Shown here: in pieces, positions 26,076 through 51,851 of the stretch
Position numbering within the stretch: the stretch's first letter is position 1
Layout: every line of letters begins with the position of its first letter
Origin: an uncultured Lachnospiraceae bacterium
Lineage (GTDB): Bacteria; Bacillota; Clostridia; Lachnospirales; Lachnospiraceae
Reading direction: 5' to 3'
Length of the DNA stretch: 64,000 bases
Assembly (NCBI GenBank): GCA_951800685.1
Contig: CATOJY010000004.1
Location: forward strand, 62,001-126,000
Translations under genes and position numbers: made by a program
Notes under the pieces: generated by a model
Database searches by the model: none
Told to the model about the DNA's origin: nothing
Seen by the model: the letters and a program-made list of their open reading frames with translations, nothing else

Positions 26076-26113
26076 CGAGTGTGTCATATTTTAAGAAAGG
26101 CTCTGTTTTCAAG

Positions 26114-27169: not shown

Positions 27170-27206
27170 CGTTGAATTTTAGGTAAGAGAATGTTTCAGC
27201 CAGTAA

Positions 27207-27237: not shown

Positions 27238-27274
27238 GAAATAATCTGTTATACAGTTCATGGCAAAGGATTAC

Positions 27275-29128: not shown

Positions 29129-29333
29129 GTTACAGATTTGTTAAGTTGAAAGTTTACATAAGACACAATTCACAGGCAGGATAAAGTGCACTTGAAATCA
29201 GGTGGATATTCGACGGTATGGCGATAAGAGGATGTTGTAGAGTAACAGTATGGAGATTGACGGAAGAATGTTTAAAAACATACATTTTCCGTTTTATCCT
29301 GAGATGCCGATTAGGTGACATATGGAGGTTAGC

Positions 29334-32390: not shown

Positions 32391-32473
32391 GGGTTGAATT
32401 TAGGGGAATGTGGCAGTATCATTACTATTAGGTTACTGTATCGATTTATAATCAACAAAATTTGGAGGAAACT

Positions 32474-33553
32474 ATGAGAACCTATCTAGTGACAGGGGGA
32501 GCCGGTTTTATCGGATCCAATTATATTCATTATATGTTTCATAAGTATGGAAATAAGATTCGGATCATTAATGTAGATGCGTTGACGTATGCGGGCAATC
32601 TGGAGAACTTGAAAGAATTTGAGAGCTGGGAGAACTATACCTTTCTGAAAGCAGATATCTGTGACAAGGAGGCAATCTCAGCGATATTTAAGGAGAACGA
32701 GATTGACAGAGTAGTACATTTTGCGGCTGAGAGCCATGTGGACAGGAGTATTCGGAATCCTGAGATTTTCGTGCAGACCAATGTGCTTGGCACGGCGGTT
32801 ATGCTGAATTGTGCGAAAGCGGCATGGGAACTGCCTGACGGCAGTTTTAAAGAAGGGAAAAGATTCCTGCATGTTTCTACGGATGAAGTGTATGGTTCTT
32901 TGGAGGAAGAAGGCGGCTATTTCTATGAGACAACGCCCTATGCGCCGAGAAGTCCCTATTCGGCCAGCAAGGCAAGTTCGGACATGCTGGTAAAAGCTTA
33001 TATGGACACTTACCATTTTCCAGCCAATATTACCAACTGTTCCAACAATTACGGACCGTATCAGTTTCCAGAGAAACTGATTCCCTTGATTATTAATAAT
33101 GCGCTCCAGGGAAAGAAGCTGCCTGTTTATGGAGATGGCAGAAATGTGCGCGATTGGCTGTATGTGGAGGATCATGCCAAAGCGATCGATATGGTACAGG
33201 AACAAGGAAGGCTGTTTGAGACTTATAATGTAGGCGGCCACAATGAGAAGCAGAATATTGAAATTGTAAAGATCATTATCAGAACGCTGCAGGAAATGCT
33301 TCCTGCAAGCGACCCGCGCAGGGCGCTTGTTAGTGAAGACTTGATCACGTATGTGGAAGACCGTAAAGGACATGACAGAAGATATGCCATTGCGCCGGAT
33401 AAGATCAAGAAAGAGATCGGCTGGGAGCCGGAAACAATGTTTGAAGAGGGGATTCGCCGTACAATCCAGTGGTTTTTTGAGAATGAAGAGTGGATGAAGA
33501 ACGTTACAAGTGGTGATTACCAGAAGTATTATGCGGAGATGTACAAAGACTAA
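32474..33553 (+). CDS. rmlB: dTDP-glucose 4,6-dehydratase
   Basis: A 359-residue short-chain dehydrogenase-type enzyme that converts dTDP-glucose to dTDP-4-keto-6-deoxyglucose. The NAD site is TGGAGFIGSNY at the N-terminus, the catalytic segment is HVSTDEVYGSL, and the Tyr/Lys pair is in YSASKASSD. GGAGG places the start at ATG 32474; a TTG 12 bases earlier overlaps the ribosome site. It is followed by rmlA and, after a lysozyme gene, rmlC. Confidence 0.96.
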   Translation: MRTYLVTGGAGFIGSNYIHYMFHKYGNKIRIINVDALTYAGNLENLKEFESWENYTFLKADICDKEAISAIFKENEIDRVVHFAAESHVDRSIRNPEIFVQTNVLGTAVMLNCAKAAWELPDGSFKEGKRFLHVSTDEVYGSLEEEGGYFYETTPYAPRSPYSASKASSDMLVKAYMDTYHFPANITNCSNNYGPYQFPEKLIPLIINNALQGKKLPVYGDGRNVRDWLYVEDHAKAIDMVQEQGRLFETYNVGGHNEKQNIEIVKIIIRTLQEMLPASDPRRALVSEDLITYVEDRKGHDRRYAIAPDKIKKEIGWEPETMFEEGIRRTIQWFFENEEWMKNVTSGDYQKYYAEMYKD

Positions 33554-33687: not shown

Positions 33688-34557
33688 ATGAAGGGAATTA
33701 TTCTGGCAGGAGGTTCGGGTACAAGGTTGTATCCGCTGACAAAGGCAGTCTCTAAGCAGATTATGCCAATTTATGATAAACCGATGATTTATTATCCGCT
33801 TTCTACGCTTATGCTGGCGGGAATCAGGGAGATCCTGATTATATCAACTCCGCGGGATCTGCCTTCTTTCCAGGAGTTGTTCGGCACGGGAGAGCAGCTT
33901 GGTTTGCGGATGGAATATGCGGTACAGGAATACCCAAGGGGATTGGCAGATGCTTTTATCATTGGCGCTGATTTTATTGGAGATGACAGAGTGGCGCTGG
34001 TGCTGGGAGATAATATTTTCTATGGACAGAGCTTTTCCAGTGTGCTGCGGAGGGTGGCGTCCAGAGAGAGCGGAGCAACAATCTTCGGGTATTACGTCAG
34101 AGATCCGAGGGAGTATGGGGTAGTTGAGTTTGACGAGGACGGCAAGGCGCTCTCAATTGAGGAGAAGCCGGAACATCCCAGAAGCAATTATGCTGTGCCG
34201 GGCCTATATTTCTATGACAATGACGTGGTAGAGATCGCGGCGAATGTGCAGCCATCTGCCAGAGGTGAGATTGAGATTACAAGTGTCAACAATGAATATC
34301 TGCGCAGAGGGGATCTGCGCGTGGAGACTTTGGGACGAGGCTTTGCATGGCTGGATACAGGCAATCATGATTCTCTGTTGGATGCGGCTGATTTTGTTGC
34401 AGCTTTTCAGAAAAGACAGGGGTTGTATATTTCCTGTATTGAAGAGATTGCCTATAAGAGAGGCTTTATTTCGAAAGAACAGTTATTAAAGCTGGCAGAA
34501 CCATTGATGAAGACAAACTATGGCCAGTATATGATAGAGGTTGCAAATGGGCTCTAA
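33688..34557 (+). CDS. rmlA: Glucose-1-phosphate thymidylyltransferase
   Basis: A 289-residue nucleotidyltransferase making dTDP-glucose from glucose-1-phosphate and dTTP. The N-terminus [16 protein letters not shown] is the nucleotide-binding signature; [18 protein letters not shown] and LGDNIFYG follow. Full length for the short RmlA class. Its end overlaps the start of the next lysozyme gene by 11 bases. Substrate supply may come from the phosphoglucomutase at 45857. Confidence 0.97.
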
Positions 34558-35993: not shown

Positions 35994-36560
35994 ATGGGCA
36001 AGATAACAGTAGAGACATGTGAGATTGAGGGATTGAAGGTGATCGTACCGACTGTGTTCGGTGATTCCAGAGGTTATTTTATAGAGACTTATAACTACAA
36101 TGATTTCAAGGAGGCCGGTATAGACCAGGTCTTCGTGCAGGATAACCAGTCCGCTTCGACGAAGCATGTACTTCGAGGCCTTCATTTCCAGATCCAGTAT
36201 CCGCAGGATAAGCTGGTCCGCGTTTTGAGCGGTGAGGTCTTTGATGTGGCGGTGGATTTAAGGCCAGGCTCTGCAACTTATGGCAAGTGGCATGGTGTGG
36301 TGCTTTCTGCGGAGAATAAGAAACAGTTCTTTGTTCCTAAGAATTTTGCACATGGCTTCCTTGTGTTATCAGATTATGCGGAATTTGCTTATAAGTGCAC
36401 AGACTTCTATCATCCGAACGATGAGGGTGGTATTCTGTGGAACGATCCTGACATTGGGGTTGAGTGGCCGATTCCGGAAGGAGTTTCGCCTGTTATGTTA
36501 GACAGGGACATGAAATGGGACGGTATTGCGGAGTATACAGAGAAGTATTGCAAAGGATGA
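35994..36560 (+). CDS. rmlC: dTDP-4-dehydrorhamnose 3,5-epimerase
   Basis: A 188-residue cupin epimerase. Motifs GDSRGYFIETYN, QDNQSASTKHVLRGLHFQ (with the catalytic His) and KNFAHGFLVLSD match RmlC. It turns dTDP-4-keto-6-deoxyglucose into dTDP-4-keto-rhamnose. The reductase RmlD, which finishes dTDP-L-rhamnose, is not in this window and must be elsewhere if rhamnose is the product. ATG 35994 has GAGGAG upstream. Confidence 0.95.
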   Translation: MGKITVETCEIEGLKVIVPTVFGDSRGYFIETYNYNDFKEAGIDQVFVQDNQSASTKHVLRGLHFQIQYPQDKLVRVLSGEVFDVAVDLRPGSATYGKWHGVVLSAENKKQFFVPKNFAHGFLVLSDYAEFAYKCTDFYHPNDEGGILWNDPDIGVEWPIPEGVSPVMLDRDMKWDGIAEYTEKYCKG

Positions 36561-36641: not shown

Positions 36642-37679
36642 ATGAAGTTGGAAAAGACGGAGTATATCAATCAATCTGACAAGAAAATAAAGACACCCAA
36701 AAAGTCCGCAGGAATCGCTACATTCTGGGGACTTGGTCTGATTCTGGCGTTGGTGCTCGTGCATCATCACAATCCGCTGGCAGACCAGGTGACAGAGCAG
36801 ATGAAGAAAGTCAGCGGCTGTGTTTTGATTACATTCACCTGCATTATTTTTACGATTTATTATGAGAGAATTCTGACCATTCCGGTGGAGCTTTTCCAGA
36901 GTAGGAAATTGATCTGGAAACTCGCAAAGAATGATTTTAAGAACCGGTACGCAGGTTCTTATCTAGGGATCATCTGGGCGACAGCGCAGCCTATTGTTAC
37001 GGTGGTCATGTACTGGATTGTCTTCGATAAGGTGTTTGACACCAGGAGCCAGATGGTGGCAAGTGGCTTAGAAGTGCCTTATGTTCTGTATTTGACAGCG
37101 GGGCTGGTTCCCTGGTTCTACTTTTCGGAGGCGATCACGCAGGGAACGATGGCTTTACTGGAATACAATTATCTAGTCAAAAAGGTAGTTTTCAACATTA
37201 GCATTCTGCCGATCATCAAAGTGATTTCTGCTACCTTTATCCATATATTTTTTGTTGTGGTACTGTTAGCCGTATCGGTCGGATATGGCTATTATCCTAA
37301 TATTTATACACTCCAACTGGTCTATTATAGTATGTGTCTGTTCCTGCTTGTGCTTGGTATGAGCTATCTAACCTGCGCGGTAGTAGTTTTTATCAGGGAT
37401 TTGCAGCAAATCATTGCGATTGCACTGCAGATCGGTATGTGGGCTACGCCGATTCTGTGGAATATTACAATGTTGAAGACAGACAATATGAAAATGCTTT
37501 TCAAGTTGAATCCTCTCGTTTATATCGTTAACGGTTATCGGAGTGCGATCTATGAGGAAGTGTGGTTTTGGGAGCATTTTTATTCCTCTACTTATTTCTG
37601 GATCTTTACGATCAGCCTGTTCTGTATTGGTACATTGATCTTTAGAAGAATGCGGGTGCATTTTGCAGACGTGTTATAA
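36642..37679 (+). CDS. wzm: ABC-2 type polysaccharide exporter permease (Wzm-like)
   Basis: About 345 residues. The core ABC-2 domain starts near residue 85 (LIWKLAKNDFKNRYAGSYLG) and has six helices, with NPLVYIVNGYRSAIYEE near the end. Before it are two extra N-terminal hydrophobic segments (about 22-68) not present in standard Wzm/TagG proteins. Members export undecaprenyl-diphosphate-linked O-antigen or teichoic acid chains. ATG 36642 is preferred; GTG 36624 is possible. The ATPase partner is next. Confidence 0.88.
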   Translation: MKLEKTEYINQSDKKIKTPKKSAGIATFWGLGLILALVLVHHHNPLADQVTEQMKKVSGCVLITFTCIIFTIYYERILTIPVELFQSRKLIWKLAKNDFKNRYAGSYLGIIWATAQPIVTVVMYWIVFDKVFDTRSQMVASGLEVPYVLYLTAGLVPWFYFSEAITQGTMALLEYNYLVKKVVFNISILPIIKVISATFIHIFFVVVLLAVSVGYGYYPNIYTLQLVYYSMCLFLLVLGMSYLTCAVVVFIRDLQQIIAIALQIGMWATPILWNITMLKTDNMKMLFKLNPLVYIVNGYRSAIYEEVWFWEHFYSSTYFWIFTISLFCIGTLIFRRMRVHFADVL

Positions 37680-37714
37680 AATAGCCGAATGATTACGGGG
37701 AATCAGGATAGATT

Positions 37715-39061
37715 ATGGATAATATTGCAATTCAGGTGACAGATGTTGAAAAAGTTTATAAATTATATGATAAGCCTTCGGACCGGTTGAGAGAGGCGCT
37801 TGGGATCGGACGTGGCAAGCATCACACGGAGCATCGTGCCCTGAAAGGGGTTAATCTGACGATCAGGCAGGGAGAATGCGTAGGAATCATTGGGACGAAT
37901 GGTTCCGGGAAGTCTACGATCCTGAAGATTATAACCGGTGTTTTGAATCCAACGAGGGGAAGCGTGACGGTCAATGGACGTATCTCCGCTCTGTTAGAGC
38001 TGGGCGCTGGTTTTAACAACGAATACAATGGAATTGAAAATATCTATCTGAATGGAACCATGATCGGTTTTACAGAGAAGGAGATTGATGAAAAACTGGA
38101 TTCTATTCTGGAATTTGCAGATATTGGGGAATATGTCTATCAGCCGGTAAAAACTTATTCCAGTGGTATGTTTGTGCGTCTTGCTTTTGCGGTAGCGATC
38201 AATATCAATCCGGAGATTCTGATTGTGGATGAGGCGTTGTCTGTGGGAGACGTTTTCTTCCAGGCGAAATGTTATCATAAGTTTGAAGAGTTTAAGGAAA
38301 TGGGCAAGACGATTGTCTTTGTAAGTCATGATCTTAGCAGTATCAGTAAGTATTGTGACAGGGTTGTGCTCTTAAACCAGGGAAGCAAACTTGGAGAGGG
38401 TTCGGCGAAGGAGATGATTGATACCTACAAGCAGGTACTGGTTGGACAGTATGCTGCGCCAGAACCCGAACATGAGCGGCTGTTGGATGATGAACAGCTT
38501 CGGAATGCAGCCAAAGGAGCGAAAGATAAGGGAGTGCAGACGACAGTATCTTCTGCGGCGGAGCAGTCAGAGCCGGCGGAAGGAGCGGCGGCCGGCGGCA
38601 TTGCTGAGAATCCGGAACTGTTGGAATATGGTTCCAAGAAGGCTGTAATCAAAGAATATTATATTACAGATGACAAGGGTGTCATAACCTCAGCAATCAT
38701 AAAAGGAAACCTGTTTACGATTCACATGAGGGTGCAGATGGCGGAGGATCTGCAGGCTCCCATTTTTGCGTTTACGATTAAGAACGTGCGTGGAACAGAG
38801 ATCACGGGAACCAATACGATGTTTGAGAAGGCTTTTTTGGAACCAGTGGCGGCAGGGGAAACGTATGAGGTGAATTTTACACAGGAAATGAATCTACAGG
38901 GTGGGGAATATCTACTATCCCTGGGGGTGACCGGATACGAGGAGGATGATTTCACGGTATATCACAGATTGTACGATGTATTGAACCTGACAGTGATATC
39001 AGATAAAAATACGGTCGGCTTCTATGACATGAATTCCAAAATAGAAGTACAGAAGAAATAG
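37715..39061 (+). CDS. wzt: ABC polysaccharide exporter ATPase with C-terminal cargo domain (Wzt-like)
   Basis: A 448-residue protein. The N-terminal ABC domain has Walker A GTNGSGKST (from Gly60), signature SSGMFVRLAFA and Walker B ILIVDEAL. After a low-complexity Ala/Glu linker (about 250-300) comes a beta-rich Wzt_C-type domain (about 310-445). In E. coli O9a the same domain binds the capped end of the finished chain and licenses export. The next gene encodes a candidate capping enzyme, which supports that mechanism here. Confidence 0.92.
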   Translation: MDNIAIQVTDVEKVYKLYDKPSDRLREALGIGRGKHHTEHRALKGVNLTIRQGECVGIIGTNGSGKSTILKIITGVLNPTRGSVTVNGRISALLELGAGFNNEYNGIENIYLNGTMIGFTEKEIDEKLDSILEFADIGEYVYQPVKTYSSGMFVRLAFAVAININPEILIVDEALSVGDVFFQAKCYHKFEEFKEMGKTIVFVSHDLSSISKYCDRVVLLNQGSKLGEGSAKEMIDTYKQVLVGQYAAPEPEHERLLDDEQLRNAAKGAKDKGVQTTVSSAAEQSEPAEGAAAGGIAENPELLEYGSKKAVIKEYYITDDKGVITSAIIKGNLFTIHMRVQMAEDLQAPIFAFTIKNVRGTEITGTNTMFEKAFLEPVAAGETYEVNFTQEMNLQGGEYLLSLGVTGYEEDDFTVYHRLYDVLNLTVISDKNTVGFYDMNSKIEVQKK

Positions 39062-39128
39062 GGCAAGGGCTTTGCGGCCAGTCTGCATGACGGGAGCGGG
39101 AAGCGTGAAGGATGGCAGATAGAAAGGT

Positions 39129-41225
39129 ATGGATGTCAGGATGGCAGAGAATAGGATGGAGAAGATCGGAAAAGTGAAACTGGATCTGACACATTACCCA
39201 GGGGAGGATTATTACTGCGATGGGGAGGTGGAAGATGAACTGTTAGAGATCGCACGCAATTATTCCACGGTAGAGTACCAGCGGATTATTGAGGAGCGGG
39301 GAAGCTGGCCAATTCTCTATCATTTGTCTTCTCTGCGGGAGAACATTGTTGAATGGCTGCCAATTTCAAAGGATATGAAAGTATTGGAAGTCGGGGCAGG
39401 ATGCGGGGCAATCACAGGAGCGCTGGCACAGAAGGCGGCGGAAGTGACCAGCATTGATCTGTCAGGCAAGCGCAGCAGGATCAATGCATATCGGCATATG
39501 GATGCGGATAATGTGACGATCCACGTAGGAAACTTTCAGGAGATTGAGCCAGACCTGCCCTGTGATTATGATTATATCTGCCTGATTGGGGTATTCGAGT
39601 ACGCACAGGCGTATATCCAGTCTGACAGGCCCTACGAGCGTTTTCTGGAGATTTTGCGCAGACATGTGAAAGCGTCAGGGCATATCGCGATTGCCATTGA
39701 GAATAAGTTTGGCCTGAAATATTGGGCGGGATGCAGGGAAGACCATCTGGGAACCTTTTTCTCCGGACTGGAGAATTATCCGGAAGGTGGTGTAGTGCGG
39801 ACTTTTACAAGAGAGGGACTGCTTAAGATCGCAGAAAACTGTGGATTTACGCAGACACAGATGTATTATCCCTACCCGGACTACAAGTTTATGACCAGCC
39901 TATTTTCAGATGAAAGATTGCCGCAAGTAGGGGAGTTATCTGCGAATTTGCGTAATTTTGACAGGGATAGGCTGCAGTTGTTCGATGAGAAGAAAGTATT
40001 TGATGCGATTATAGAGGAAGAGAAGTTTCCGCTGTTCTCGAATTCTTATATGCTGCTGTTAGGGCCGGCGTTAGAGGAAGAATATGTGAAATATTCGAAT
40101 GACAGGAGAGCGGAATTTGCAATCAAGACAGTACAGCGCAGGACGCCGCAGGGAAAAATTATAGAAAAGCACCCGTTATCAAAACAGGCATGGGAACATA
40201 TCGCAAAGACGGCAAAGATGGCTGGCCGGCTGGCAGAGCGGTTTGCTGACAGCGGGTTGACAGTCAACCAGTGTACACCGAGAGAGACGGCGGACGGCAC
40301 GCCTTATCTGGAGTTGGAATATATCGAGGGTGTCAGATTAGAGGAGCTTCTTGACGGATGTCTGGAACGGAATGATGTGGAAGGGTTCCAGAAACTGTTT
40401 GACGAATATGTGCGCAGGATTTCTTGTGGGGAAGAGATGCCTGTGGCAGATTATGATCTGATTTTTGCCAATCTGATCCTTTCCGAGGGTGTTGAACGGG
40501 AATGGCATGTGATCGATTATGAGTGGAGTTTTGAGAAATGTATTGAGACGAAAGAGATCGCTTTTCGTGCAATCTATTGTTATTTATTGGAGAATGAGAA
40601 GAGAAATTCATTAAATCTTGGTTTAGTGATGGATAAATTGGGGATTACGCAGTCTGATGCGGAACAATACCGGAGACAGGAGATGGCCTTTCAGCAGTAT
40701 GTGACCGGGAAACACATGTCTATGGCGCAGATCCGCGAGGCGATCGGGCATCCGGTGTATACCGTGGAGGATTTCTGTAAGGGACAGGAGAGAGCGGGAC
40801 AAAGAGACCGGATCCAGATCTATGAGGATACTGGAAAAGGATTTCAGGAAGAACAGTCGTTTTTTATTGACGAAACCATGGATGAGCAGGTACAGATCAC
40901 ACCGGAAGGCATGACGGAGTTGGAAGTGATGATCGCCAGGGGCAGGAGCGCACTGCGGATCGATCCATGCAACGATTGTTGCCTGATCTACCTGCAGAAG
41001 ATCCGCTGGAATGGAGTGGAGATACCTGTCAAAGGAAGACAGATCCAGATGAATGGATTTAGAGTCGGTGAAAATACTTATGTATTTCCGACAAAAGATC
41101 CCAATATTACGTTTTCTTTGGCCGGAATGCAGGGGGAGGAGCACAACCTGCTGCAGATTGGCATGGCAGTGACAAAGCTGCCGGAAGAGACAGTGAAACA
41201 TATGCAGAAAAGAGGATTGTTTTAG
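39129..41225 (+). CDS. Methyltransferase-kinase fusion, WbdD-like candidate chain terminator
   Basis: A 698-residue protein. An N-terminal class I SAM methyltransferase has motif I VLEVGAGCGAITG from residue 85. A kinase-like domain follows: Lys333 (FAIKTV), a hinge-like LELEYIEG, DYDLIFANLIL with Asp443 and Asn448 at the exact HxDxxxxN spacing, and WHVIDYEW with Asp463 in the DFG position. A beta-rich domain ends it (about 575-690). WbdD of E. coli O9a has the same methyltransferase-kinase order and caps the polymer with methyl phosphate. The position between Wzt and chain-building transferases fits. The start could be a few codons later; ribosome sites are unclear. Confidence 0.75.
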   Translation: MDVRMAENRMEKIGKVKLDLTHYPGEDYYCDGEVEDELLEIARNYSTVEYQRIIEERGSWPILYHLSSLRENIVEWLPISKDMKVLEVGAGCGAITGALAQKAAEVTSIDLSGKRSRINAYRHMDADNVTIHVGNFQEIEPDLPCDYDYICLIGVFEYAQAYIQSDRPYERFLEILRRHVKASGHIAIAIENKFGLKYWAGCREDHLGTFFSGLENYPEGGVVRTFTREGLLKIAENCGFTQTQMYYPYPDYKFMTSLFSDERLPQVGELSANLRNFDRDRLQLFDEKKVFDAIIEEEKFPLFSNSYMLLLGPALEEEYVKYSNDRRAEFAIKTVQRRTPQGKIIEKHPLSKQAWEHIAKTAKMAGRLAERFADSGLTVNQCTPRETADGTPYLELEYIEGVRLEELLDGCLERNDVEGFQKLFDEYVRRISCGEEMPVADYDLIFANLILSEGVEREWHVIDYEWSFEKCIETKEIAFRAIYCYLLENEKRNSLNLGLVMDKLGITQSDAEQYRRQEMAFQQYVTGKHMSMAQIREAIGHPVYTVEDFCKGQERAGQRDRIQIYEDTGKGFQEEQSFFIDETMDEQVQITPEGMTELEVMIARGRSALRIDPCNDCCLIYLQKIRWNGVEIPVKGRQIQMNGFRVGENTYVFPTKDPNITFSLAGMQGEEHNLLQIGMAVTKLPEETVKHMQKRGLF

Positions 41226-41228
41226 CGT

Positions 41229-43661
41229 ATGAACAGAGGGGCGAATCAGTATGATTGGGCTGCATATTATGCAGCAGCTTATGAGAAAGAGCGGAAACAA
41301 AATATAGTGCTGGCGGAGAGGATTGCTGATGCGGAGAGAAGACAGGCGGATCTTAGAGATAATCTGGATCGTATCTGTGCTACGCCTTTCTGGAAGATGA
41401 CGGTGCCGTTTCGCAGGCTGGCGGAGAGGATCAGGCAGCGACGGGAGCAAAATCAGGATCTGGACAGGTGTTCTAAGCAGAACGCCTGTCTTGTGCGTTA
41501 TATGAGAGAGGTACAGCGGCAGAAACAGCCTTACCAGGAATGGCTGCGGGAATATAATAGCGAATGTTATGAAAAAGCGGCTCCGCTGGCGGAAATGACA
41601 GAGAATGAGAAGGTGTTGTCTGTCGCTGGATGGGAAGCCGTCAGGGTGCCAGAGTCTGATATTATGCTGCTGACGTATGGCGGCGGTGTACTTGCAGAAA
41701 ATATATTTTCAGAAATTAAATCTTATTTTAATAATAAAAAATCATGTGTTATAGCCTATGCTGATGAGGATTTCTATTGGGAGGATCTTTCGCAGCGTAT
41801 GGAGCCATGGTTTAAGCCCTGTTATTCACCAGACACACTGTTATCTTATAATTATTGGGGACATCTTGTGGCGGTGAGAGAGAGTCTGTTGATGGATGTC
41901 TTAAAAGAGGAAGTGGTGCGTAGTTTTCTGGACGAGAATAGTGACGAGCCGGAAAGCGTGAGACAAGCTGTGAGATTTTATCATCTTTGCCTGTATTTGG
42001 AAGAGTCAGTGATAAGAGAGTGCCAGTTTTGTGGCAGATCTGTTTCTGCTTGTATCTGCCATATCCCGTTAGTGCTTTTTCATCGGCCGTATCAGCCAGA
42101 TGATAAGGTAAGGGAGACGATTGGGGAATGCCAGACCAAAGAGGAGAAGTATATCAAAGCACAGCAGTGTCTTGTACAGGAACTGGAAGCAGGAGAACAT
42201 CTGACTGGAGCCGGCGCAGAGTATGTGGCTGTGCGTGAAGCGGCGTTATACAGGAGGGGAAGCAGGGCAAGCCTGCAGTGTGGATCGGAGCGTGATGTGT
42301 ATCATGTGGTTTATGATACGGCGATATCGGGGAGAGAGCGGTGCGCCCGTGCACAACGTACAGGCAGGAATATCCATCCTCATCCATTGGTGTCAGTGGT
42401 AATTCCCTCCAAAGATCATCCGGAAGTATTGGAACAGTGTCTGCAGTCTTTCCGAAAAAAAACACTGTACGATTGCTATGAGTGGATTGTGGTGGACAAC
42501 GGAAGCAGCACAGAGAACCGCAGCAGAATAGAAGCATTACAGAAAGAATATGGATTTTGCTATCTGTATGAGGAAATGCCCTTTAATTTTTCGAAAATGT
42601 GTAATAGAGGAGTAGCGAAGGCGCAAGGGGATCTGATCCTGCTTCTAAATGATGACATCGAAATCATAGAGAAGAACTGGCTTGGCCGGATGGTAGGACA
42701 AGCGCTCCAGCCACATGTGGGTGCAGTGGGGGCTAAATTATGGTATGCGGGTACCAGGCAGATCCAGCATGCAGGCATTACTAATCTGCGGATCGGGCCA
42801 TCCCATAAACTGGTAACTTTTCAGGATGACAGAGACTATTATTATGGACGCAACCGTGTGACCTACGATATGGCGGGGGTGACGGCAGCTTGTCTGATGG
42901 TAACGAAGGCGAAATACGAAGAGGTAGGCGGTCTGGATGAGACGATGGCAGTTTCCTATAATGATGTGGAGTTCTGTTTTAAACTGTTGGAGGCTGGATA
43001 TTATAATGTACTGCGCAACGATGTAGTGTTGTATCATCATGAGTCGTTGAGCAGGGGGTTGGATGAACAGGATGAGGGTAAATGGGAAAGGCTTCTTTTC
43101 GAGAAAAAAAATCTATATGCGAAACATCCGCAGATGGATGGCTGGGACGATTTCTATCACGAAAATCTGATCGATAACGCCTCAGATTACCGCTGCAATT
43201 ACAAGTTTGCCTATGAAGATCCACTGCATACGGCAGAAGTTCTGCCGCTGCAGGAGGAAGATACAGTGCGGTCGAAAGAAGAAGGCCTAAAACTGATCGT
43301 GGACAGAGCGGAGGTACAGCATAAGATCCATGAGGAAGAGCCGGATATTATCTGGATCATGGGCTGGTGTTATGTGACGGAAGAAGATAACGCTTTGTAT
43401 GATAAGAAAATATTGCTGCAGCGTGCAGATGGATCTGGCTATAGTGCAGTACCGGCAGATTGGAACCGCAAAGATGTGGAGGAGAGTCTGCGGGGGGAAA
43501 TGCATATTGGATTGGCAGGATTCGTCCTGCGCATATTGGAGCAGGATTTGGATGCCGGAATCTATCAGATTGGAATGCAGTGTACGGATCAGGTGAGCGG
43601 TGAAAAGAAGCTTGCGTGGAGTGATAAAGGAATAACGGTTGATATTCATGAGGTAGGATGA
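41229..43661 (+). CDS. Multidomain family 2 glycosyltransferase
   Basis: An 810-residue protein. An N-terminal coiled coil (about 15-85) leads to the motif FWKMTVPFRRL, then a region with little similarity (about 100-380). A GT2 domain follows (about 388-640), with PLVSVVIPSKD, WIVVDNGSS, ILLLNDDIEI and a helical part ending YHHESLSRGLD. A beta-rich C-terminal domain of about 140 residues ends the protein. It starts three bases after the previous stop, so the two are translationally linked. Predicted cytoplasmic and involved in chain extension; sugar unknown. Confidence 0.85.
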   Translation: MNRGANQYDWAAYYAAAYEKERKQNIVLAERIADAERRQADLRDNLDRICATPFWKMTVPFRRLAERIRQRREQNQDLDRCSKQNACLVRYMREVQRQKQPYQEWLREYNSECYEKAAPLAEMTENEKVLSVAGWEAVRVPESDIMLLTYGGGVLAENIFSEIKSYFNNKKSCVIAYADEDFYWEDLSQRMEPWFKPCYSPDTLLSYNYWGHLVAVRESLLMDVLKEEVVRSFLDENSDEPESVRQAVRFYHLCLYLEESVIRECQFCGRSVSACICHIPLVLFHRPYQPDDKVRETIGECQTKEEKYIKAQQCLVQELEAGEHLTGAGAEYVAVREAALYRRGSRASLQCGSERDVYHVVYDTAISGRERCARAQRTGRNIHPHPLVSVVIPSKDHPEVLEQCLQSFRKKTLYDCYEWIVVDNGSSTENRSRIEALQKEYGFCYLYEEMPFNFSKMCNRGVAKAQGDLILLLNDDIEIIEKNWLGRMVGQALQPHVGAVGAKLWYAGTRQIQHAGITNLRIGPSHKLVTFQDDRDYYYGRNRVTYDMAGVTAACLMVTKAKYEEVGGLDETMAVSYNDVEFCFKLLEAGYYNVLRNDVVLYHHESLSRGLDEQDEGKWERLLFEKKNLYAKHPQMDGWDDFYHENLIDNASDYRCNYKFAYEDPLHTAEVLPLQEEDTVRSKEEGLKLIVDRAEVQHKIHEEEPDIIWIMGWCYVTEEDNALYDKKILLQRADGSGYSAVPADWNRKDVEESLRGEMHIGLAGFVLRILEQDLDAGIYQIGMQCTDQVSGEKKLAWSDKGITVDIHEVG

Positions 43662-43726
43662 CTGGCCGGGGGCCAGTCTGTCAATGTGTAGGACAGGAAG
43701 CAGCGATCAGAAAGGAATCATGCTAT

Positions 43727-45721
43727 ATGGAGCAAAGAGAGACAAGCCAAAGGACCGAAGAAGAGGCTCTGCATTTTTACAGGGATGCCTATGAACGGGA
43801 GAGGAAGAAGGCCCGGTTTCTGGCAGTTCGGCTTTCGGATGAGGAGTATAGGAACCTTGAATTGGAAAAGAAACTTGCCGTGATCAAAGGAAGCTTTCTG
43901 TGGCGTGTGTCCAAGCCGCTGCGCAGCCTTGTGCACTGGGTTCACCGCACGAAAGAGCGGGTCAACCGTTATGGTGACCTGAAAGGGATCTTGCGTAAAT
44001 TAAATGCAAAAGGCATTGAGCGCAAAGCGCGGATCCAGCATGGAACTGCCAGTTTTCCTGATGTAGAGGAGGCAAAAAGGCAGCGTGGGACGAAGTTTGA
44101 CAGGAATATCAAATTCAGCATTTTGGTGCCGCTTTACAATACACCAGAGAAGTTTTTGCGGCAGGCAGTGGAATCGGTAACAGCCCAGACTTACGAAAAC
44201 TGGGAATTGTGCCTTGCAGATGGTTCCGATGCAGAACATGTTGAGGTTGGCAGGATCTGCAGGGAATATATGGTAAAAGATGGCCGCATACGATATCGGA
44301 AACTGGCTAAAAATGAAGGGATCTCCGGGAATACCAATGCCTGTCTTGATATGGCTACGGGAGAATACATTGCGCTGTTTGACCACGATGATGTGCTGCA
44401 TCCAAGTGTGCTATACGAATATATGAAAGTGATCTGTGGGAAAGGTGCTGATTACATTTATTGTGACGAAGCTACTTTTCAGGGAAATAAGACAATCGAC
44501 GATATGATCACCCTGCATTTTAAGCCGGATTATGCTCCGGATAATTTGCGTGCCAACAATTATATCTGCCATTTCAGTGCTTTTGACAGGAAACTACTGG
44601 AATGTATGCCGCTGTTCCGTTCCCAGTTTGACGGTAGTCAGGATCATGATATGATCCTGCGTCTGACGAACAGGGCTAACTGTGTGGTACATGTACCTAA
44701 ACTGCTCTACTACTGGAGGTCGCACGCAGGAAGCGTGGCTTCTGATATCAATGCTAAGAGCTACGCCATTGAGGCAGCGAAAGGAGCTGTAGCAGCCAGC
44801 CTAAGACAACAAGGGTTCAATGATTTTGAGATCACGTCAACAAAGGCTTTTGAGACGATCTTTCGGATTAAGTATGAGATACAGGCAAACCCTCTCGTGA
44901 GCATCATTATTCCGAATAAAGACCATGTGGAAGATCTGCAGCGTTGTATTCTTTCGATCCTTGAGAAGAGCACCTACGATCATTACGAGATTATTGTGGT
45001 AGAAAACAACAGTACTACTGATGAGATCTTTGAGTACTACAAGAAGATACAGCAGAACGCGAATATCCGCGTGATCAATTACGAAGGTGAGTTTAATTAT
45101 TCCAGGATCAACAATCTGGGAGCAGAGCAGGCGAAGGGGGAGTATATCCTGCTTCTCAACAATGATACGAAGGTGATCAGCCTGGATTGGATTGAGGAGA
45201 TGCTCATGTATGCCCAGCGCAGTGATGTGGGTGCAGTGGGTGCGAAGCTTTATTATGAGGATAGGACGATCCAGCATGCCGGCGTGGTGTTGGGATTAGG
45301 GCAGCACAGGACGGCTGGGCACAGCCATTACCGTGTCAGCAGCAATAATCTTGGATATATGGGAAGACTTTGCTATGCACAGAATGTCATGGCAGTGACA
45401 GGTGCGTGTCTGATGATGAAGAAAGCGCTGTTTATGGAGTTGGGCGGATTGGATGAAGAATTTGCTGTTTCTTTAAATGATGTAGATTTGTGCGTGCGTG
45501 CATGGAAAGCCGGGTATGTCAATGTATTTACGCCGTTTGCGGAGTTATTCCACTTTGAGTCTATTTCACGCGGCTTGGATGATACAGGGGAGAAGGCGAA
45601 GCGGTATGACAGGGAATCAGAAGTTTTCCGGACCAAATGGAAGGATCTGCTGGCCAAAGGAGATCCCTACTATAATCCCAATTTCTCGCTGGACCGGAGC
45701 GATTTTGCGTTGAAAATCTAG
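43727..45721 (+). CDS. Family 2 glycosyltransferase with two catalytic domains
   Basis: About 664 residues. A coiled-coil start and the motif FLWRVSKPLRSL precede two GT2 domains. The first has FSILVPLYNTPEKFLRQ, NEGISGNTNACL and FDHDDVLHP. The second has PLVSIIIPNKDHVEDLQ, VVENNSTT and LLLNNDTKVI and ends HFESISRGLDD. Two-domain GT2 proteins often make alternating linkages in rhamnan-type and similar polymers. AAAGGA precedes ATG 43727; the in-frame ATG at 43658 overlaps the previous gene and has no site. Confidence 0.9.
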   Translation: MEQRETSQRTEEEALHFYRDAYERERKKARFLAVRLSDEEYRNLELEKKLAVIKGSFLWRVSKPLRSLVHWVHRTKERVNRYGDLKGILRKLNAKGIERKARIQHGTASFPDVEEAKRQRGTKFDRNIKFSILVPLYNTPEKFLRQAVESVTAQTYENWELCLADGSDAEHVEVGRICREYMVKDGRIRYRKLAKNEGISGNTNACLDMATGEYIALFDHDDVLHPSVLYEYMKVICGKGADYIYCDEATFQGNKTIDDMITLHFKPDYAPDNLRANNYICHFSAFDRKLLECMPLFRSQFDGSQDHDMILRLTNRANCVVHVPKLLYYWRSHAGSVASDINAKSYAIEAAKGAVAASLRQQGFNDFEITSTKAFETIFRIKYEIQANPLVSIIIPNKDHVEDLQRCILSILEKSTYDHYEIIVVENNSTTDEIFEYYKKIQQNANIRVINYEGEFNYSRINNLGAEQAKGEYILLLNNDTKVISLDWIEEMLMYAQRSDVGAVGAKLYYEDRTIQHAGVVLGLGQHRTAGHSHYRVSSNNLGYMGRLCYAQNVMAVTGACLMMKKALFMELGGLDEEFAVSLNDVDLCVRAWKAGYVNVFTPFAELFHFESISRGLDDTGEKAKRYDRESEVFRTKWKDLLAKGDPYYNPNFSLDRSDFALKI

Positions 45722-47670: not shown

Positions 47671-47766
47671 ACTGTATAGGAAAGTATGCCTGGTTTTTTG
47701 ATCCGCGCAGCAAAGCAAGCAAATCCCATGAAAGGGATGTGCTCGTTTTTTATAGGTGGCAGGGAG

Positions 47767-49209
47767 ATGGGAAATAGGATAATTAACTGGAACAATTTAA
47801 ATAAAACCATGCGTTATTTAAAGAAAAATGGAATCCGGCATGCCTATTATGCAGCAAGAGAGCGGATAGAGGAGGAACGGAAAGAGGATTACTGCTACCG
47901 GCCGCCATCTGAGGAAGCTTTGGGCAGGCAGCGGCGTGAGACAGCGGATCTGCCGTATCTGTTCAGTATCGTAGTGCCGGTATATGAGACGAGAGAAGAA
48001 TTTCTGAGAGCTATGATAGATTCTGTAAGGCAGCAGAGCTATGGCGGATGGGAACTGCTTTTAGTAGATGCCAGCAGCAGCGACGCGGTGGAGAAGATTG
48101 TCAGGGAAATCGTGGAAGAACAGCAGGACGACCGTATGAAATATTGGCATTTCAGAGAGAATAAGGGTATCTCCGGGAATACCAATGTGGGAATTGAGAG
48201 GGCGTCAGGAGACTATATCGCACTGTTAGACCACGATGATCTGCTTGCACCGGATGCCTTGTACCATATGGTCAAGGCATTGCAGACGGCAAAACAGCGG
48301 GGAAGAAATCCGGTGTTGCTTTATTCCGATGAGGACAAGCTTGAAAGCAGTGCCTCAGGGCAGTTATACTATGGTTCGCCACATTGGAAAGAGGAATTTA
48401 ATCTGGATTTGATTTTATCCAACAACTATATCTGTCATTTTACGGCTGTAGAGGCAGAGGTGATGAAAAGCTTACAGCTGCGCGGGGAATACGATGGTGC
48501 ACAGGATTATGACCTGGTGCTTCGGGTGATAGGAAAGCTATATGAGACAGGACCAGTGCAGGATTTCATGCATGATATTGTGCACGTGCCGGGGATCCTT
48601 TATCACTGGCGGTGTCATGCCGATTCTACTGCCGCAAACACGGCCAGTAAATCGTATGCTTATGATGCGGGAGCTGCGGCGCTGCAGGATTTCTGCGACA
48701 GACGCGGATGGAAGGGGAAGGTTGGACACAGCCTTCATCTGGGGTTCTATCAGATCCACTATCTGCCCGACATTCTGACAGCAAGACAGGATGTAGGAAT
48801 TGTAGGCGGCAGGATCTTAGACAGAGGTAACCGGATCTGCGCAGGTGCATACCAGGAAGACGGGAAATGCATGTATGAGGGGCTGCACAGGGAGTACAGC
48901 GGCGGCAGTACGCACCGCGCTGCGTTGAAGCAGGATGTCTATGCGGTGGACATTAGATGTATGCAGGTACGGCCGGAACTGCGGGAAGTGTTTGCCCAGA
49001 TCACAGGGGCAGCCTATCGGGAGAGGCGGATTAGCTGTAGAACAGAAGGTGGCAGCAGAGAGAGACAGATCGCGGATGTATCAGGGCTATGCTGTGATGA
49101 AGCAGGGTACCGTAAGCTTAGCCTGGAGATCGGCAGGGCGGCGGCGCAGAGGGGATATTTGGTCTTGTGGGATCCGGGACTAACCTGCAATACCCGTGTT
49201 AATCTTTAA
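47767..49209 (+). CDS. Family 2 glycosyltransferase with shortened second domain
   Basis: About 480 residues. One complete GT2 domain has LFSIVVPVYETREEF, NKGISGNTNVGI, LLDHDDLLAPD and the helical YICHFTAVEAEVM part. It is followed by a stretch (about 345-430) that resembles only the second half of the second GT2 domain of the protein at 43727 (VGIVGGRILDRG against VGAVGAKLYYED). The N-terminal half of that domain, with IIIPNKD, is absent. The start at 47767 has AGGTGGCAGGG upstream, and upstream codons form a non-coding-looking leader. Probably active with the first domain only. Confidence 0.82.
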   Translation: MGNRIINWNNLNKTMRYLKKNGIRHAYYAARERIEEERKEDYCYRPPSEEALGRQRRETADLPYLFSIVVPVYETREEFLRAMIDSVRQQSYGGWELLLVDASSSDAVEKIVREIVEEQQDDRMKYWHFRENKGISGNTNVGIERASGDYIALLDHDDLLAPDALYHMVKALQTAKQRGRNPVLLYSDEDKLESSASGQLYYGSPHWKEEFNLDLILSNNYICHFTAVEAEVMKSLQLRGEYDGAQDYDLVLRVIGKLYETGPVQDFMHDIVHVPGILYHWRCHADSTAANTASKSYAYDAGAAALQDFCDRRGWKGKVGHSLHLGFYQIHYLPDILTARQDVGIVGGRILDRGNRICAGAYQEDGKCMYEGLHREYSGGSTHRAALKQDVYAVDIRCMQVRPELREVFAQITGAAYRERRISCRTEGGSRERQIADVSGLCCDEAGYRKLSLEIGRAAAQRGYLVLWDPGLTCNTRVNL

Positions 49210-49292
49210 ATAGACCGTTTATAACAGCTGGACGCGAGTATATGACGTTGGCGTGCTGCAGAGCAGAAAAGAGAAGAGAGTAAGGCTGGCAT

Positions 49293-50261
49293 ATGAACAG
49301 AGAGATAAAGTCGACAGTCATTATTCCCAATTTTAACGGGATACAGTATATTGAAAACTGCCTGCATACATTGGCAGAAGAACCAGCACACTTGATTGTG
49401 GTGGATAATGGTTCCGTGGATGGAAGCAGGGAGCTGGTCAGGGATAAGTTCCCGTCAGTGAAATTGGAGTGTTTAGACCGCAATTATGGGTTTTGCAGGG
49501 CGGTAAATGTGGGAATACAATGCAGCAAAACACCATACGTTATTTTGCTAAATAATGATACGGAAGTCGAAGCTGGTTTTGTGAGAGCGCTGGAGAGGCC
49601 GCTGGAACAGCACAGGGATATTTTCTCAGGAGCAGCGCAGATGCGCAGCCTGCGGCAGCCAAAGCTGATCGATGATGCGGGCGATTATTACTGTGCGCTG
49701 GGTTGGGCATTTGCCTGTGGGAAGGATAAGCCAATAGACGGATATCAGAGAGGGCGTGAGATCTTTGCTGCCTGTGGAGGGGCGGCGATCTTTCGCAAGA
49801 GAGCGCTGGACCAGATTGGCTTGCTGGATGAGAACCACTTTGCTTATCTGGAAGATATTGATCTGGGATACCGCGCAAGAATCTATGGCTACCGTAACAT
49901 CTATATTCCAGAGGCAGTGGTATATCATGCAGGAAGCGGTGCATCAGGTTCAAGGTATAATAAGTTTAAGGTAGACATGTCTTCCAAAAACAGTATTTAT
50001 CTGATCTATAAAAATATGCCGTTTTTCCAGATTGTGTTGAATCTGCCGTTCCTATTTGTTGGTTTTACCGTAAAAGCATTGTTTTTCCTGAGAAAAGGGC
50101 TGGGCATTGCGTATCTGAAAGGGTTGGGCAGAGGATTTCGGCTGTGTGTCTCTAAGGAGGGCAGGAGACATAAAGTACGGTTTCAGAGAGAGAATTTACA
50201 CTGCTATGTCATGATCCAGTTAGAATTGTGGCGTAACATATGGTACCGGATCTGCAAATGA
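49293..50261 (+). CDS. Family 2 glycosyltransferase, rhamnosyltransferase-like
   Basis: A 322-residue GT2 enzyme with STVIIPNFNGIQYIENC, LIVVDNGSVDGS, VILLNNDTEVE, DDAGDYYCALGWAF, FAYLEDIDLGYR and AVVYHAGSGASG. These are typical of WbbL/RfbN-type rhamnosyltransferases. A hydrophobic patch (about 245-265) may attach it to the membrane. A dTDP-sugar made by the rml enzymes is a plausible donor. It is 83 bases after the previous gene. Confidence 0.88.
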   Translation: MNREIKSTVIIPNFNGIQYIENCLHTLAEEPAHLIVVDNGSVDGSRELVRDKFPSVKLECLDRNYGFCRAVNVGIQCSKTPYVILLNNDTEVEAGFVRALERPLEQHRDIFSGAAQMRSLRQPKLIDDAGDYYCALGWAFACGKDKPIDGYQRGREIFAACGGAAIFRKRALDQIGLLDENHFAYLEDIDLGYRARIYGYRNIYIPEAVVYHAGSGASGSRYNKFKVDMSSKNSIYLIYKNMPFFQIVLNLPFLFVGFTVKALFFLRKGLGIAYLKGLGRGFRLCVSKEGRRHKVRFQRENLHCYVMIQLELWRNIWYRICK

Positions 50262-50441
50262 GAGATGACTGGTTGTGTTTTATGCTGAAATATTGTAAGA
50301 TGAAGTAGCGGTCTGGTCTGCGCACGGACTACTGCGCTTTCTATGCCATAGAGTTGAGCAGGGAATGTTCCATTACAAAGATAAAGTCTAAACCGATCAG
50401 ATGTTTTAGTTGAATGATATGTGGTATGTACAGGGATTGGT

Positions 50442-51851
50442 ATGATCAAAGATAATCAGAAATATTTTAATAGATTGCACGTAGTGCTGGATGCCCTAGT
50501 GGTGGCGGCGTCCTATATGCTGGCATGGTATTTGAAGTTTGCCGGTCCTTTTTCGAACAGCGATCCAAATGTCGGTGCTCTTTCTATGGGCACTTATTTT
50601 GAGATGCTGATTTTGATTGTGCCAGGATGTCTGATTCTCTATTATACTTTTAATCTTTATACGGCGAAACGTGCGACGGTCCATAAGTATGAGATTCTTA
50701 ATATTTTCCAGGCCAATACGGTAGGCTTGATCATTCTTATGGCTGGCTGGTATATGGTTTCGCAGATTCATTTCTCCCGTCTTATGATGGGGTATTTCTA
50801 TATTATCAATATTACTCTGACAGCGCTTGTACGCTCTCTGATCAGGGTTCTCCTGCAGTATTTCCGTGAAAAAGGCTATAATCTCAAGTATATTCTGTTG
50901 GTTGGTTATTCGCGTGCAGCGGAGGAATATATAGGCCGTATCAATTCCAATCCACAGTGGGGGTACGTCGTGAGAGGCATTCTGGATGACAGTGTGCCAA
51001 GCGGGACGGTGTATAAAGGAGTCAAGGTACTGGGGCGGATCGATAATCTGCATTACATTCTGCCGCAGAACAAGTTGGATGAGATTGCAATTACGCTCTC
51101 CCTGAAAGACTATGACCATTTAGAGCGGATCGTGGATATGTGTGAGAAATCCGGGGTCCATACGAAGTTTATCCCAGACTATAACAGTCTGTTTCCGAGC
51201 AGACCGTACACGGAAGATTTGATGGGACTTCCTGTGATCAACATACGTTATGTACCGTTATCCAATACACTAAACTGGATCTCCAAACGTATTGTGGATA
51301 TTGCGACGGCACTGGCAGGGCTGGTGGTGTCCGCCCCGGTTATGCTGGGAGCCGCCATTGCAGTAGGATGTACATCGAGAGGCCCTATTATTTTCAAACA
51401 GGAGAGAATCGGTCTGCATAACAAGCCCTTTAAAATGTACAAATTCCGTACAATGGAAGTACAGAAACCCTCTAAAGAAGCACAGGGATGGACGACGAAA
51501 GATGATCCCAGGGTGACCAAAGTCGGTAAGTTCTTAAGAAGGACAAGTATTGACGAGCTGCCGCAGCTTTTTAATATTCTGAAAGGAAATATGAGCGTGG
51601 TGGGACCAAGGCCGGAACGGCCGCAGTTTGTGGAAAAATTTAAAGAGGAGATTCCCCGCTACATGGTGAAGCATCAAGTAAGGCCTGGATTGACCGGATG
51701 GGCGCAGATCAATGGCTATCGGGGAGATACATCGATAAAACGCAGAATAGAGTATGATATTTTTTATATCGAAAACTGGACGATGTCTTTTGACATTAAG
51801 ATTATGTTCCTGACAATTTTCAAAGGCTTTATTAATAAAAATGCCTATTAG
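50442..51851 (+). CDS. Undecaprenyl-phosphate sugar-1-phosphate transferase (priming enzyme, WbaP/WcaJ-like)
   Basis: About 469 residues. Four to five N-terminal helices precede a Rossmann-like CoA-binding-type domain (YILLVGYSRAAEEYIG). The bacterial sugar transferase catalytic domain at the C-terminus contains FKQERIGLHNKPFKMYKFRTM, DELPQLFNILKGNMSVVGPRPE and RPGLTGWAQINGYRG. It moves hexose-1-phosphate from a UDP-sugar to undecaprenyl phosphate and so starts the repeat unit or chain. ATG 50442 has AGGGATTGG upstream. A 180-base gap precedes it with no gene. Confidence 0.94.
   Translation: MIKDNQKYFNRLHVVLDALVVAASYMLAWYLKFAGPFSNSDPNVGALSMGTYFEMLILIVPGCLILYYTFNLYTAKRATVHKYEILNIFQANTVGLIILMAGWYMVSQIHFSRLMMGYFYIINITLTALVRSLIRVLLQYFREKGYNLKYILLVGYSRAAEEYIGRINSNPQWGYVVRGILDDSVPSGTVYKGVKVLGRIDNLHYILPQNKLDEIAITLSLKDYDHLERIVDMCEKSGVHTKFIPDYNSLFPSRPYTEDLMGLPVINIRYVPLSNTLNWISKRIVDIATALAGLVVSAPVMLGAAIAVGCTSRGPIIFKQERIGLHNKPFKMYKFRTMEVQKPSKEAQGWTTKDDPRVTKVGKFLRRTSIDELPQLFNILKGNMSVVGPRPERPQFVEKFKEEIPRYMVKHQVRPGLTGWAQINGYRGDTSIKRRIEYDIFYIENWTMSFDIKIMFLTIFKGFINKNAY

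What the first reader, a model, noticed from the sequence alone, without database searches (positions are those of the whole stretch)
36642..41225. A WbdD-like methyltransferase-kinase beside Wzm/Wzt in a Gram-positive glycan locus
The sequence shows an ABC exporter ATPase with a C-terminal cargo domain, followed by a protein with a SAM methyltransferase and then a kinase-like domain. The kinase part has Lys333, Asp443, Asn448 (HxDxxxxN spacing) and Asp463. In E. coli O9a, WbdD caps the chain with methyl and phosphate and Wzt recognises the cap. A matching set in a likely Lachnospiraceae would imply O-antigen-like length control of a wall polymer. The His of HxD is Asp441 here, so catalysis is uncertain.
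Basis: partly seen in the sequence, partly recalled or inferred. Interest (0 to 1): 0.75.

Follow-up and report, generated by a model that had tools for sequence, protein, structure and literature searches.

The report
Gram-positive methyl-phosphate glycan-cap enzyme
A gut Lachnospiraceae bacterium carries, next to a sugar-chain exporter, an enzyme that probably stops a growing wall sugar chain by putting a methylated phosphate on its end, a mechanism worked out in Gram-negative bacteria, where such a cap is the ticket for export.

Summary
The genes are as described: Wzm, Wzt with a C-terminal carbohydrate-binding domain (CBD), then a 698-aa methyltransferase (MT)-kinase. The kinase is confirmed: the predicted fold of residues 313-528 matches KEOPS/Bud32-type kinases, aminoglycoside kinases and WaaP, and D443, N448 and D463 are invariant in 49 of 49 loci. 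Corrections: the conserved lysine is K347, not K333, and residue 441 is never His. It is not a WbdD relative by sequence. The closest characterised enzyme is the Klebsiella pneumoniae O7 terminator ORF6, an MT-kinase that adds methyl-phosphate (compared through printed residue numbers and a Pseudomonas proxy). That Pseudomonas protein fuses the MT-kinase to the two-domain glycosyltransferase encoded nearby here. Of 342 genomes, 92 have the MT-kinase; 88 of these have a Wzt CBD, 74 within 700 bp. In 20 further genomes CBD type tracks the kinase (9 of 10 versus 0 of 10). Most likely: a Gram-positive polymerase-terminator pathway for a rhamnose-containing wall glycan. New here: Gram-positive host, no coiled coil on the terminator, and relatives that keep the kinase while the MT decays. 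The cap is inferred, not measured.

The parts
36642..37679 (+). Wzm: ABC-2 type exporter permease (longer GTG start at 36624)
   Evidence: Pfam ABC2_membrane 4.7e-16; similar to Citrobacter (34%) and Pseudomonas (27%) Wzm beside homologous MT-kinases
37715..39061 (+). Wzt: ATPase (about aa 5-242) plus C-terminal carbohydrate-binding domain (aa 304-439, 38624-39031)
   Evidence: ABC_tran 4.4e-23, Wzt_C 2.2e-42; 37% identical to E. coli HS O9 Wzt over 446 columns; best solved match of the CBD is 2r5o, the O9 Wzt C-terminal domain, 9.6e-8, followed by 8dku 1.7e-6
39129..41225 (+). MT-kinase terminator, 698 aa: MT about 10-285, kinase 313-528, Ig/CBM-like tail about 561-698
39387..39407 (+). MT motif I (E87-V-G89-A-G91-C-G93), SAM-binding
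   Evidence: G89/G91 align with Pseudomonas G91/G93; the same residue numbers are reported as SAM-binding for K. pneumoniae O7 ORF6 (PMC11231755)
40065..40712 (+). kinase domain, residues 313-528
40167..40169 (+). K347, conserved lysine on the strand before the C-helix (replaces the K333 named in the finding)
   Evidence: 49 of 49 loci K; K333 is K in 13 of 49; strand 342-349 in the model
40455..40472 (+). catalytic loop D443-x4-N448
   Evidence: 49 of 49 loci, also Citrobacter and Pseudomonas; taken as the equivalent of O7 D441, whose mutation to Ala removed kinase activity (PMC11231755)
40515..40526 (+). D463-x-E465-W466, probable metal-binding Asp motif
   Evidence: 49 of 49 loci; Citrobacter has E in place of D
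40809..41222 (+). C-terminal beta-rich tail (residues 561-698), homologous in its first part to the tail of the Pseudomonas fused protein
   Evidence: BLASTP runs to residue 626; mostly strands in the model; the O7 paper reports an Ig-like CBM at this place in ORF6
41229..43661 (+). glycosyltransferase, 810 aa, N-terminal helical stretch with FWKMTVPFRR motif, then a GT2 domain
   Evidence: Pfam Glycos_transf_2 1.2e-16; motif at residue 51
43658..45721 (+). two-domain GT2 glycosyltransferase, 687 aa, N-terminal coil-like stretch plus LWRVSKPLR motif; probable polymerase
   Evidence: Glycos_transf_2 2.2e-48, 2 stretches; residues 28-685 align with residues 755-1449 of the Pseudomonas protein, 35%, 2e-126; motif at residue 79
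32462..33553 (+). RmlB (dTDP-glucose 4,6-dehydratase)
   Evidence: TIGR01181 487.6 bits, cut-off 365.1
33688..34557 (+). RmlA (glucose-1-phosphate thymidylyltransferase)
   Evidence: TIGR01207 489.9 bits, cut-off 360.65
35994..36560 (+). RmlC (dTDP-4-dehydrorhamnose 3,5-epimerase); RmlD lies elsewhere in the genome
   Evidence: TIGR01221 245 bits, cut-off 155.75; RmlD at G000:C25 and C91 over cut-off
47686..50261 (+). two further GT2 glycosyltransferases (47686-49209 and 49293-50261)
   Evidence: Pfam Glycos_transf_2 2.3e-27 and 2.8e-21
50421..51851 (+). undecaprenyl-phosphate glucose phosphotransferase (WcaJ type), probable chain initiation
   Evidence: TIGR03023 499.3 bits, cut-off 410.75
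52040..53263 (+). LytR-CpsA-Psr glycopolymer transferase, probable ligation to peptidoglycan
   Evidence: PF03816 4.6e-34; TIGR00350 93.9 bits, cut-off 62.3

Best explanation
The locus encodes a polymerase-terminator, ABC-transporter-dependent pathway for a rhamnose-containing wall glycan. WcaJ starts the chain on undecaprenyl phosphate and GT2 enzymes (chiefly the two-domain 687-aa enzyme) extend it. The 698-aa MT-kinase stops growth by phosphorylating the sugar at the non-reducing end (kinase) and methylating that phosphate (MT). The CBD of Wzt binds the capped end, so that Wzm/Wzt exports finished chains, and an LCP enzyme attaches them to peptidoglycan. Shown by sequence or model: the genes, their order, the kinase fold, the conserved active-site residues, homology to Gram-negative MT-kinases beside Wzm/Wzt, the fusion with the polymerase in Pseudomonas, co-occurrence with the CBD and coupling to CBD subtype. 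Inferred: the cap chemistry, its place at the chain end, the sugar, CBD recognition, and any length control.
For: Kinase fold for 313-528. K347, D443, N448, D463, E465, W466 invariant in 49 of 49 loci. Citrobacter and Pseudomonas plasmid homologues align over MT and kinase (28%, 5e-44; 26%, 2e-42) and lie directly after Wzm-Wzt. The Pseudomonas protein has Y28, Y66, G91, G93, E112, Y158, the same letters and numbers that PMC11231755 gives for O7 ORF6; the window has Y29, Y64, G89, G91, D110, Y158. That paper shows phosphorylation and methylation by ORF6 in vitro, and no reaction with D441A. Pseudomonas residues 755-1449 align with the window's 687-aa GT (35%, 2e-126). In 36 of 40 diverse loci the MT lies within 150 nt downstream of the CBD-bearing Wzt. 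Of 342 genomes, 88 of 92 with the MT-kinase have Wzt_C, at least 74 within 700 bp. In 20 (of 49) Wzt_C genomes without the MT-kinase hit, 9 of 10 with a window-like CBD have a divergent kinase, 0 of 10 with another CBD type do (Fisher p 1.2e-4). The CBD's best solved match is O9 Wzt, and the O9 CBD scores 90-122 against these nine kinase-linked CBDs and 50-83 against the other eleven.
Against: No cap, substrate or activity has been measured. The Gram-negative homologues lack part of the C-helix stretch; at K347 Pseudomonas has H, and Citrobacter K or R depending on the alignment; Citrobacter has E for D463. The terminator shows no coiled coil (a crude score), unlike the terminators described in PMC11231755. 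The O9 CBD match is only a little ahead of an Aquifex-type CBD (35.3 against 31.3 bits; that 8dku is from Aquifex is recalled), and over the 38 CBDs of the first set the O9 scores run 83-162, touching the other class. Related genomes are not independent, so the p-values overstate. One window-like CBD (L155) has no kinase in the 11 kb read. The model was shallow: mean pLDDT 60.7, MT part poorly modelled.
Confidence: 0.7

Rival explanations
1. The enzyme decorates the glycan along its length (phospho-methyl side groups) rather than capping the end, and the Wzt CBD reads something else.
For: No end-group data; the protein shows no coiled-coil ruler, and several GT2 enzymes are encoded nearby.
Against: CBD subtype tracks the kinase, 9 of 10 versus 0 of 10; MT-kinase directly after Wzt in 36 of 40 loci; the characterised relative, O7 ORF6, is a terminator (PMC11231755).
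Confidence: 0.13
2. The kinase is a pseudokinase with a structural role, and the cap is a methyl group alone, as proposed for Geobacillus WsaE.
For: The HxD His is missing; WsaE is a Gram-positive precedent for a 2-O-methyl-rhamnose cap beside Wzm/Wzt (PMC2943079, passages seen).
Against: K347, D443, N448 and D463 are invariant in 49 of 49 loci while MT motif I is lost in 5 and altered in 4 of them: the kinase is the better conserved half. O7 ORF6 is an active kinase (paper), and the Citrobacter and Pseudomonas homologues here also lack the His (Y and F).
Confidence: 0.08
3. It is a true WbdD orthologue.
For: Same gene order wzm-wzt-MT-kinase-GT as in E. coli HS O9; Wzt 37% identical to O9 Wzt.
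Against: No BLASTP match (best E 1.1); profile comparison finds only 80 and 94 columns of the MT Rossmann core; another MT-kinase type matches at 2e-42 and 5e-44.
Confidence: 0.02

Closest known systems
K. pneumoniae O7 terminator ORF6 (N-terminal MT-kinase), PMC11231755
   Same: MT then kinase then an Ig-like domain; same six SAM-contact positions (one E to D here) and catalytic Asp; kinase of aminoglycoside-kinase type; ABC-transporter pathway; rhamnose-containing glycan (inferred here)
   Different: Here a Gram-positive (Lachnospiraceae) host; MT-kinase and GT2 polymerase on separate genes; no coiled coil seen on the terminator; ORF6 sequence itself not compared
E. coli O9a WbdD, PMC3482155
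   Same: MT plus kinase in one chain, wzm-wzt-terminator-GT gene order; related Wzt CBD
   Different: No sequence relation detected beyond part of the MT core; WbdD has an HxD kinase motif, a coiled coil and a polymerase-recruiting C-terminus
Legionella Lcin_0519 kinase-MTase family, PMC9758233
   Same: MT plus kinase family next to Wzt/Wzm/GT genes, published as a bioinformatic survey; said to lack a C-helix, as the Citrobacter and Pseudomonas homologues here seem to
   Different: Orders named in the text seen are Pseudomonadota; not studied experimentally according to its authors; not compared with the window by sequence here; the window protein has a predicted C-helix (353-371)
Geobacillus stearothermophilus WsaE, PMC2943079
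   Same: Gram-positive, Wzm/Wzt, rhamnan, N-terminal MT that makes a 2-O-methyl cap proposed to be read by Wzt
   Different: Described there with MT and two GT domains, no kinase; glycan goes to S-layer protein; sequence not compared here

Membership tests
WbdD (E. coli O9a) | MT and kinase in one chain, next to wzm-wzt | tested here: met
   the E. coli HS protein used as WbdD has 708 aa and the paper's residues N34, Q35, H197, Y230, R270, E274, D351, W355
WbdD (E. coli O9a) | sequence homology to the WbdD kinase | tested here: not met
   BLASTP best E 1.1; hhalign aligned only part of the MT core
WbdD (E. coli O9a) | C-terminal coiled coil and membrane helix on the same protein | tested here: not met
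   crude heptad score 0.13 against 0.97 for WbdD; W[KR] motif at residue 592 of WbdD, none in the window protein
WbdD (E. coli O9a) | kinase fold closest to WbdD | tested here: inconclusive
   WbdD is not named in the 50 rows shown; absence there proves nothing
O7 ORF6-type MT-kinase terminator | SAM-contact residues Y28, Y66, G91, G93, E112, Y158 | tested here: met
   Y29, Y64, G89, G91, D110 (E to D), Y158 by alignment through Pseudomonas, which has the exact letters and numbers
O7 ORF6-type MT-kinase terminator | catalytic Asp of the kinase (O7 D441) | tested here: met
   D443 here and in Pseudomonas, invariant in 49 of 49 loci; mapping to O7 D441 is by family position, not by aligned O7 sequence
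O7 ORF6-type MT-kinase terminator | homology to the ORF6 sequence itself | not tested
   ORF6 sequence not at hand; only the Pseudomonas and Citrobacter proxies were aligned
O7 ORF6-type MT-kinase terminator | coiled coil between terminator and polymerase in one chain | tested here: not met
   terminator ends in the beta-rich tail; coil-like stretch plus W[KR] motif is on the two large GT genes
O7 ORF6-type MT-kinase terminator | adds phosphate and methyl to the chain end | not testable with these tools
   needs biochemistry
Wzt with carbohydrate-binding domain | ABC ATPase plus Wzt_C domain | tested here: met
   2r5o best solved match
Protein-kinase-like fold (APH/Bud32/WaaP side) | predicted fold and K-D-N-D residues | tested here: met
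WsaE (Geobacillus) | sequence homology of the MT | not tested
   WsaE sequence was not fetched

The most novel reading that the evidence does not exclude
In Lachnospiraceae the phosphate, not the methyl group, is the essential export signal. The kinase is kept intact in 49 of 49 loci, while in some lineages the MT has lost or altered its SAM motif, giving phosphate-only caps. The ruler has moved from terminator to polymerase or is gone, so cap timing follows a rule different from the coiled-coil ruler of WbdD and WbbB.
Probability: 0.35. Interest if true: 0.75.

Novelty: new variant of a known kind. Interest (0 to 1): 0.6.

Why it matters
It takes the cap-then-export quality control worked out for O antigens to wall glycans of Gram-positive gut bacteria. 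It also gives an MT-kinase family with a conserved partner CBD on which cap recognition can be tested directly. Natural splits, fusions and MT-decayed versions offer a ready series for asking which part of the cap the exporter reads and whether a coiled-coil ruler is needed at all. If caps exist, the wall-glycan ends of these gut bacteria carry a defined phosphate epitope.

Tried and rejected
WbdD orthology: rejected on sequence. K333 as the catalytic lysine: rejected (13 of 49). A Wzt-MT-kinase fused ORF seen in L013 (1170 aa) was not used: it runs through many unknown residues (X) and may be an assembly error. PDB profile search with the family alignment gave only weak MT hits and weak GCN2 kinase hits (E 0.017 and worse). 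DNA search of the Citrobacter gene in E. coli genomes: no match. WbdD is not among the 50 rows; no conclusion drawn. Literature: eight searches; none of the rows listed was, by title and start of abstract, about an MT-kinase terminator in a Gram-positive. Some lists were cut (8 of 11; 12 of 35; 12 of 63), and the library lacks most subscription journals. PMC13168486 (passages) describes an MT cap in E. coli O101, without a kinase.
Full report
Observation. Pfam gives ABC2_membrane for the first, ABC_tran plus Wzt_C (2.2e-42) for the second, and methyltransferase families over about residues 70-242 of the third, with nothing in the kinase region at E up to 1. The window's assembly has one Wzt_C and one MT-kinase match. 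Of 21 related genome loci, 19 are titled Lachnospiraceae, one Clostridia, one 'bacterium'.

Not WbdD by sequence. WbdD and Wzt of E. coli HS O9 were taken from the record. The record calls the gene a class I SAM-dependent methyltransferase; its 708 aa and eight residues named in PMC3482155 identify it as WbdD. BLASTP finds no MT-kinase similarity (best E 1.1). Profile comparison finds only part of the MT core, with 22 rows and with a more diverse set of 17. Gene order is the same as in O9.

What it is related to. tblastn against 72,556 plasmid records found two homologues at E up to 0.01: a 649-aa protein of Citrobacter braakii and a 1457-aa protein of Pseudomonas asturiensis. Each follows an ABC permease and ATPase; the Citrobacter set comes after rffG-rfbA-rfbC-rfbD and a transposase. 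Both align over MT and kinase (28%, 5e-44; 26%, 2e-42). K. pneumoniae O7 ORF6 (PMC11231755; passages and the first part of the Discussion seen) has MT, a 223-aa kinase, an Ig-like CBM, a coiled coil and two GT2 modules. It phosphorylates and methylates an acceptor in vitro, and D441A does not react. The paper names Y28, Y66, G91, G93, E112, Y158 at the SAM site. The Pseudomonas protein has exactly these letters at these numbers; the window has Y29, Y64, G89, G91, D110, Y158. The ORF6 sequence itself was not available.

Fusion evidence. Pseudomonas residues 28-622 align with the window MT-kinase 29-626, and residues 755-1449 with the window's 687-aa GT2 protein (35%, 2e-126). One Gram-negative polypeptide therefore corresponds to two separate genes of this locus.

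Neighbourhoods. In the 40 diverse loci the MT lies within 150 nt downstream of a CBD-bearing Wzt in 36; L115 and L119 have 4.0 and 3.2 kb between; L120 and L121 show no CBD-Wzt in the piece read. MT and kinase are separate adjacent ORFs in nine: eight by the script, plus L113 read from the table. Over 342 order-level genomes, 92 have the MT-kinase at 1e-20, 137 have Wzt_C, 88 have both, 74 of these within 700 bp (a lower bound, as one search did not list every place); 4 have the MT-kinase only and 49 Wzt_C only. Over 398 phylum-level genomes, the window's own included, 16 have a match. Relatedness inflates the significance.

CBD subtype test. I read 20 of the 49 genomes with Wzt_C but no MT-kinase hit; the choice was by hand, not random. 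Ten had a window-like CBD (scores 368-444): nine of these carry a divergent kinase, one (L155) does not. Ten had another CBD type (50-115): none has the kinase (Fisher p 1.2e-4). Each group holds two same-genus pairs, so true independence is lower. The best solved match of the window CBD is 2r5o (9.6e-8), followed by 8dku (1.7e-6); 2r5o is identical over 170 residues to the E. coli HS O9 Wzt. The O9 CBD scores 90-122 against the nine kinase-linked CBDs and 50-83 against the other eleven; against the 38 CBDs of the first set it scores 83-162. By the same scoring the window CBD is as close to the Pseudomonas CBD (125) as to that of O9 (122); Citrobacter gives 106.

MT decay. All 40 first-set loci keep an MT motif I (in L089 with D for the middle G). 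In the nine divergent ones, five have no recognisable motif (L147, L148, L152, L153, L154) and four have LQ[IL]G[SA]D-type versions (L146, L149, L150, L151), with the kinase residues intact. This suggests that phosphate is the core of the cap; it is an inference.

Ruler. In PMC11231755 the terminator sits at the far end of a coiled coil in all cases described. The window MT-kinase has no such stretch (crude heptad score 0.13; WbdD 0.97; Pseudomonas 0.59). A coil followed by a W[KR]-type motif is at or near the end of the kinase part in 6 of 9 separate kinase ORFs and near the N-terminus of 10 of 63 large GT ORFs (an eleventh GT hit is internal); of 40 MT-bearing ORFs 3 match, two of them at the C-terminus. 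Reversed controls gave 0 of 9, 0 of 63 and 0 of 40; among 683 other ORFs 7 match, against 6 reversed. In the window the motif is in the 810-aa GT (residue 51) and the 687-aa GT (residue 79), not in the MT-kinase; WbdD has it at 592; the Pseudomonas and Citrobacter proteins do not match the pattern.

Locus. RmlA, B, C are in the window and RmlD elsewhere. A WcaJ-type enzyme, four further GT2 genes and an LCP transferase fit a rhamnose-containing glycan attached to peptidoglycan; the sugar is inferred.

Prior art. WbdD: PMC3482155 (passages). A survey describes a kinase-MTase family, Lcin_0519, near Wzt/Wzm, with Pseudomonadota orders named (PMC9758233, one section and passages). Geobacillus WsaE is a Gram-positive precedent for a methyl cap beside Wzm/Wzt (PMC2943079, passages). 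PMC11231755 already calls chain termination widespread. The novelty here is the Gram-positive MT-kinase, its module layout and its CBD coupling, not the principle.

Noticed in passing
L147, L148, L152, L153, L154 (and L146, L149, L150, L151): Relatives keep all kinase residues while MT motif I is lost (five) or altered (four), as if the cap were phosphate only.
   Followed up: partly
29322-32390 and 34541-35899: Two GH25 lysozyme-like proteins lie on either side of rmlB and rmlA; the first has a repetitive acidic Glu/Asp/Tyr N-terminus, Big_2 domains and a choline-binding repeat.
   Followed up: no
24573-28300: MBOAT acyltransferase with DltB similarity (160.7 bits, under the equivalog cut-off) and a weak GDSL hit nearby, suggesting acylation of a surface polymer.
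   Followed up: no
58171-59886: ClpX-like AAA protein of 571 aa with the zinc finger at 114-149, so an N-terminal extension of about 110 residues.
   Followed up: no
phage records MT839147.1, MT836085.1, MT836982.1: Three unannotated 'Bacteriophage sp.' records from human faeces encode MT-kinase relatives (52%, 39%, 37% identity); bacterial contamination or carriage not resolved.
   Followed up: no
L155: Window-like Wzt CBD with no MT-kinase in the 11 kb read; its CBD is the least O9-like of the ten.
   Followed up: partly
39129-41225 versus L124, L125: The C-helix stretch (353-371 here) is mostly missing in the Citrobacter and Pseudomonas homologues, as reported for Lcin_0519.
   Followed up: partly
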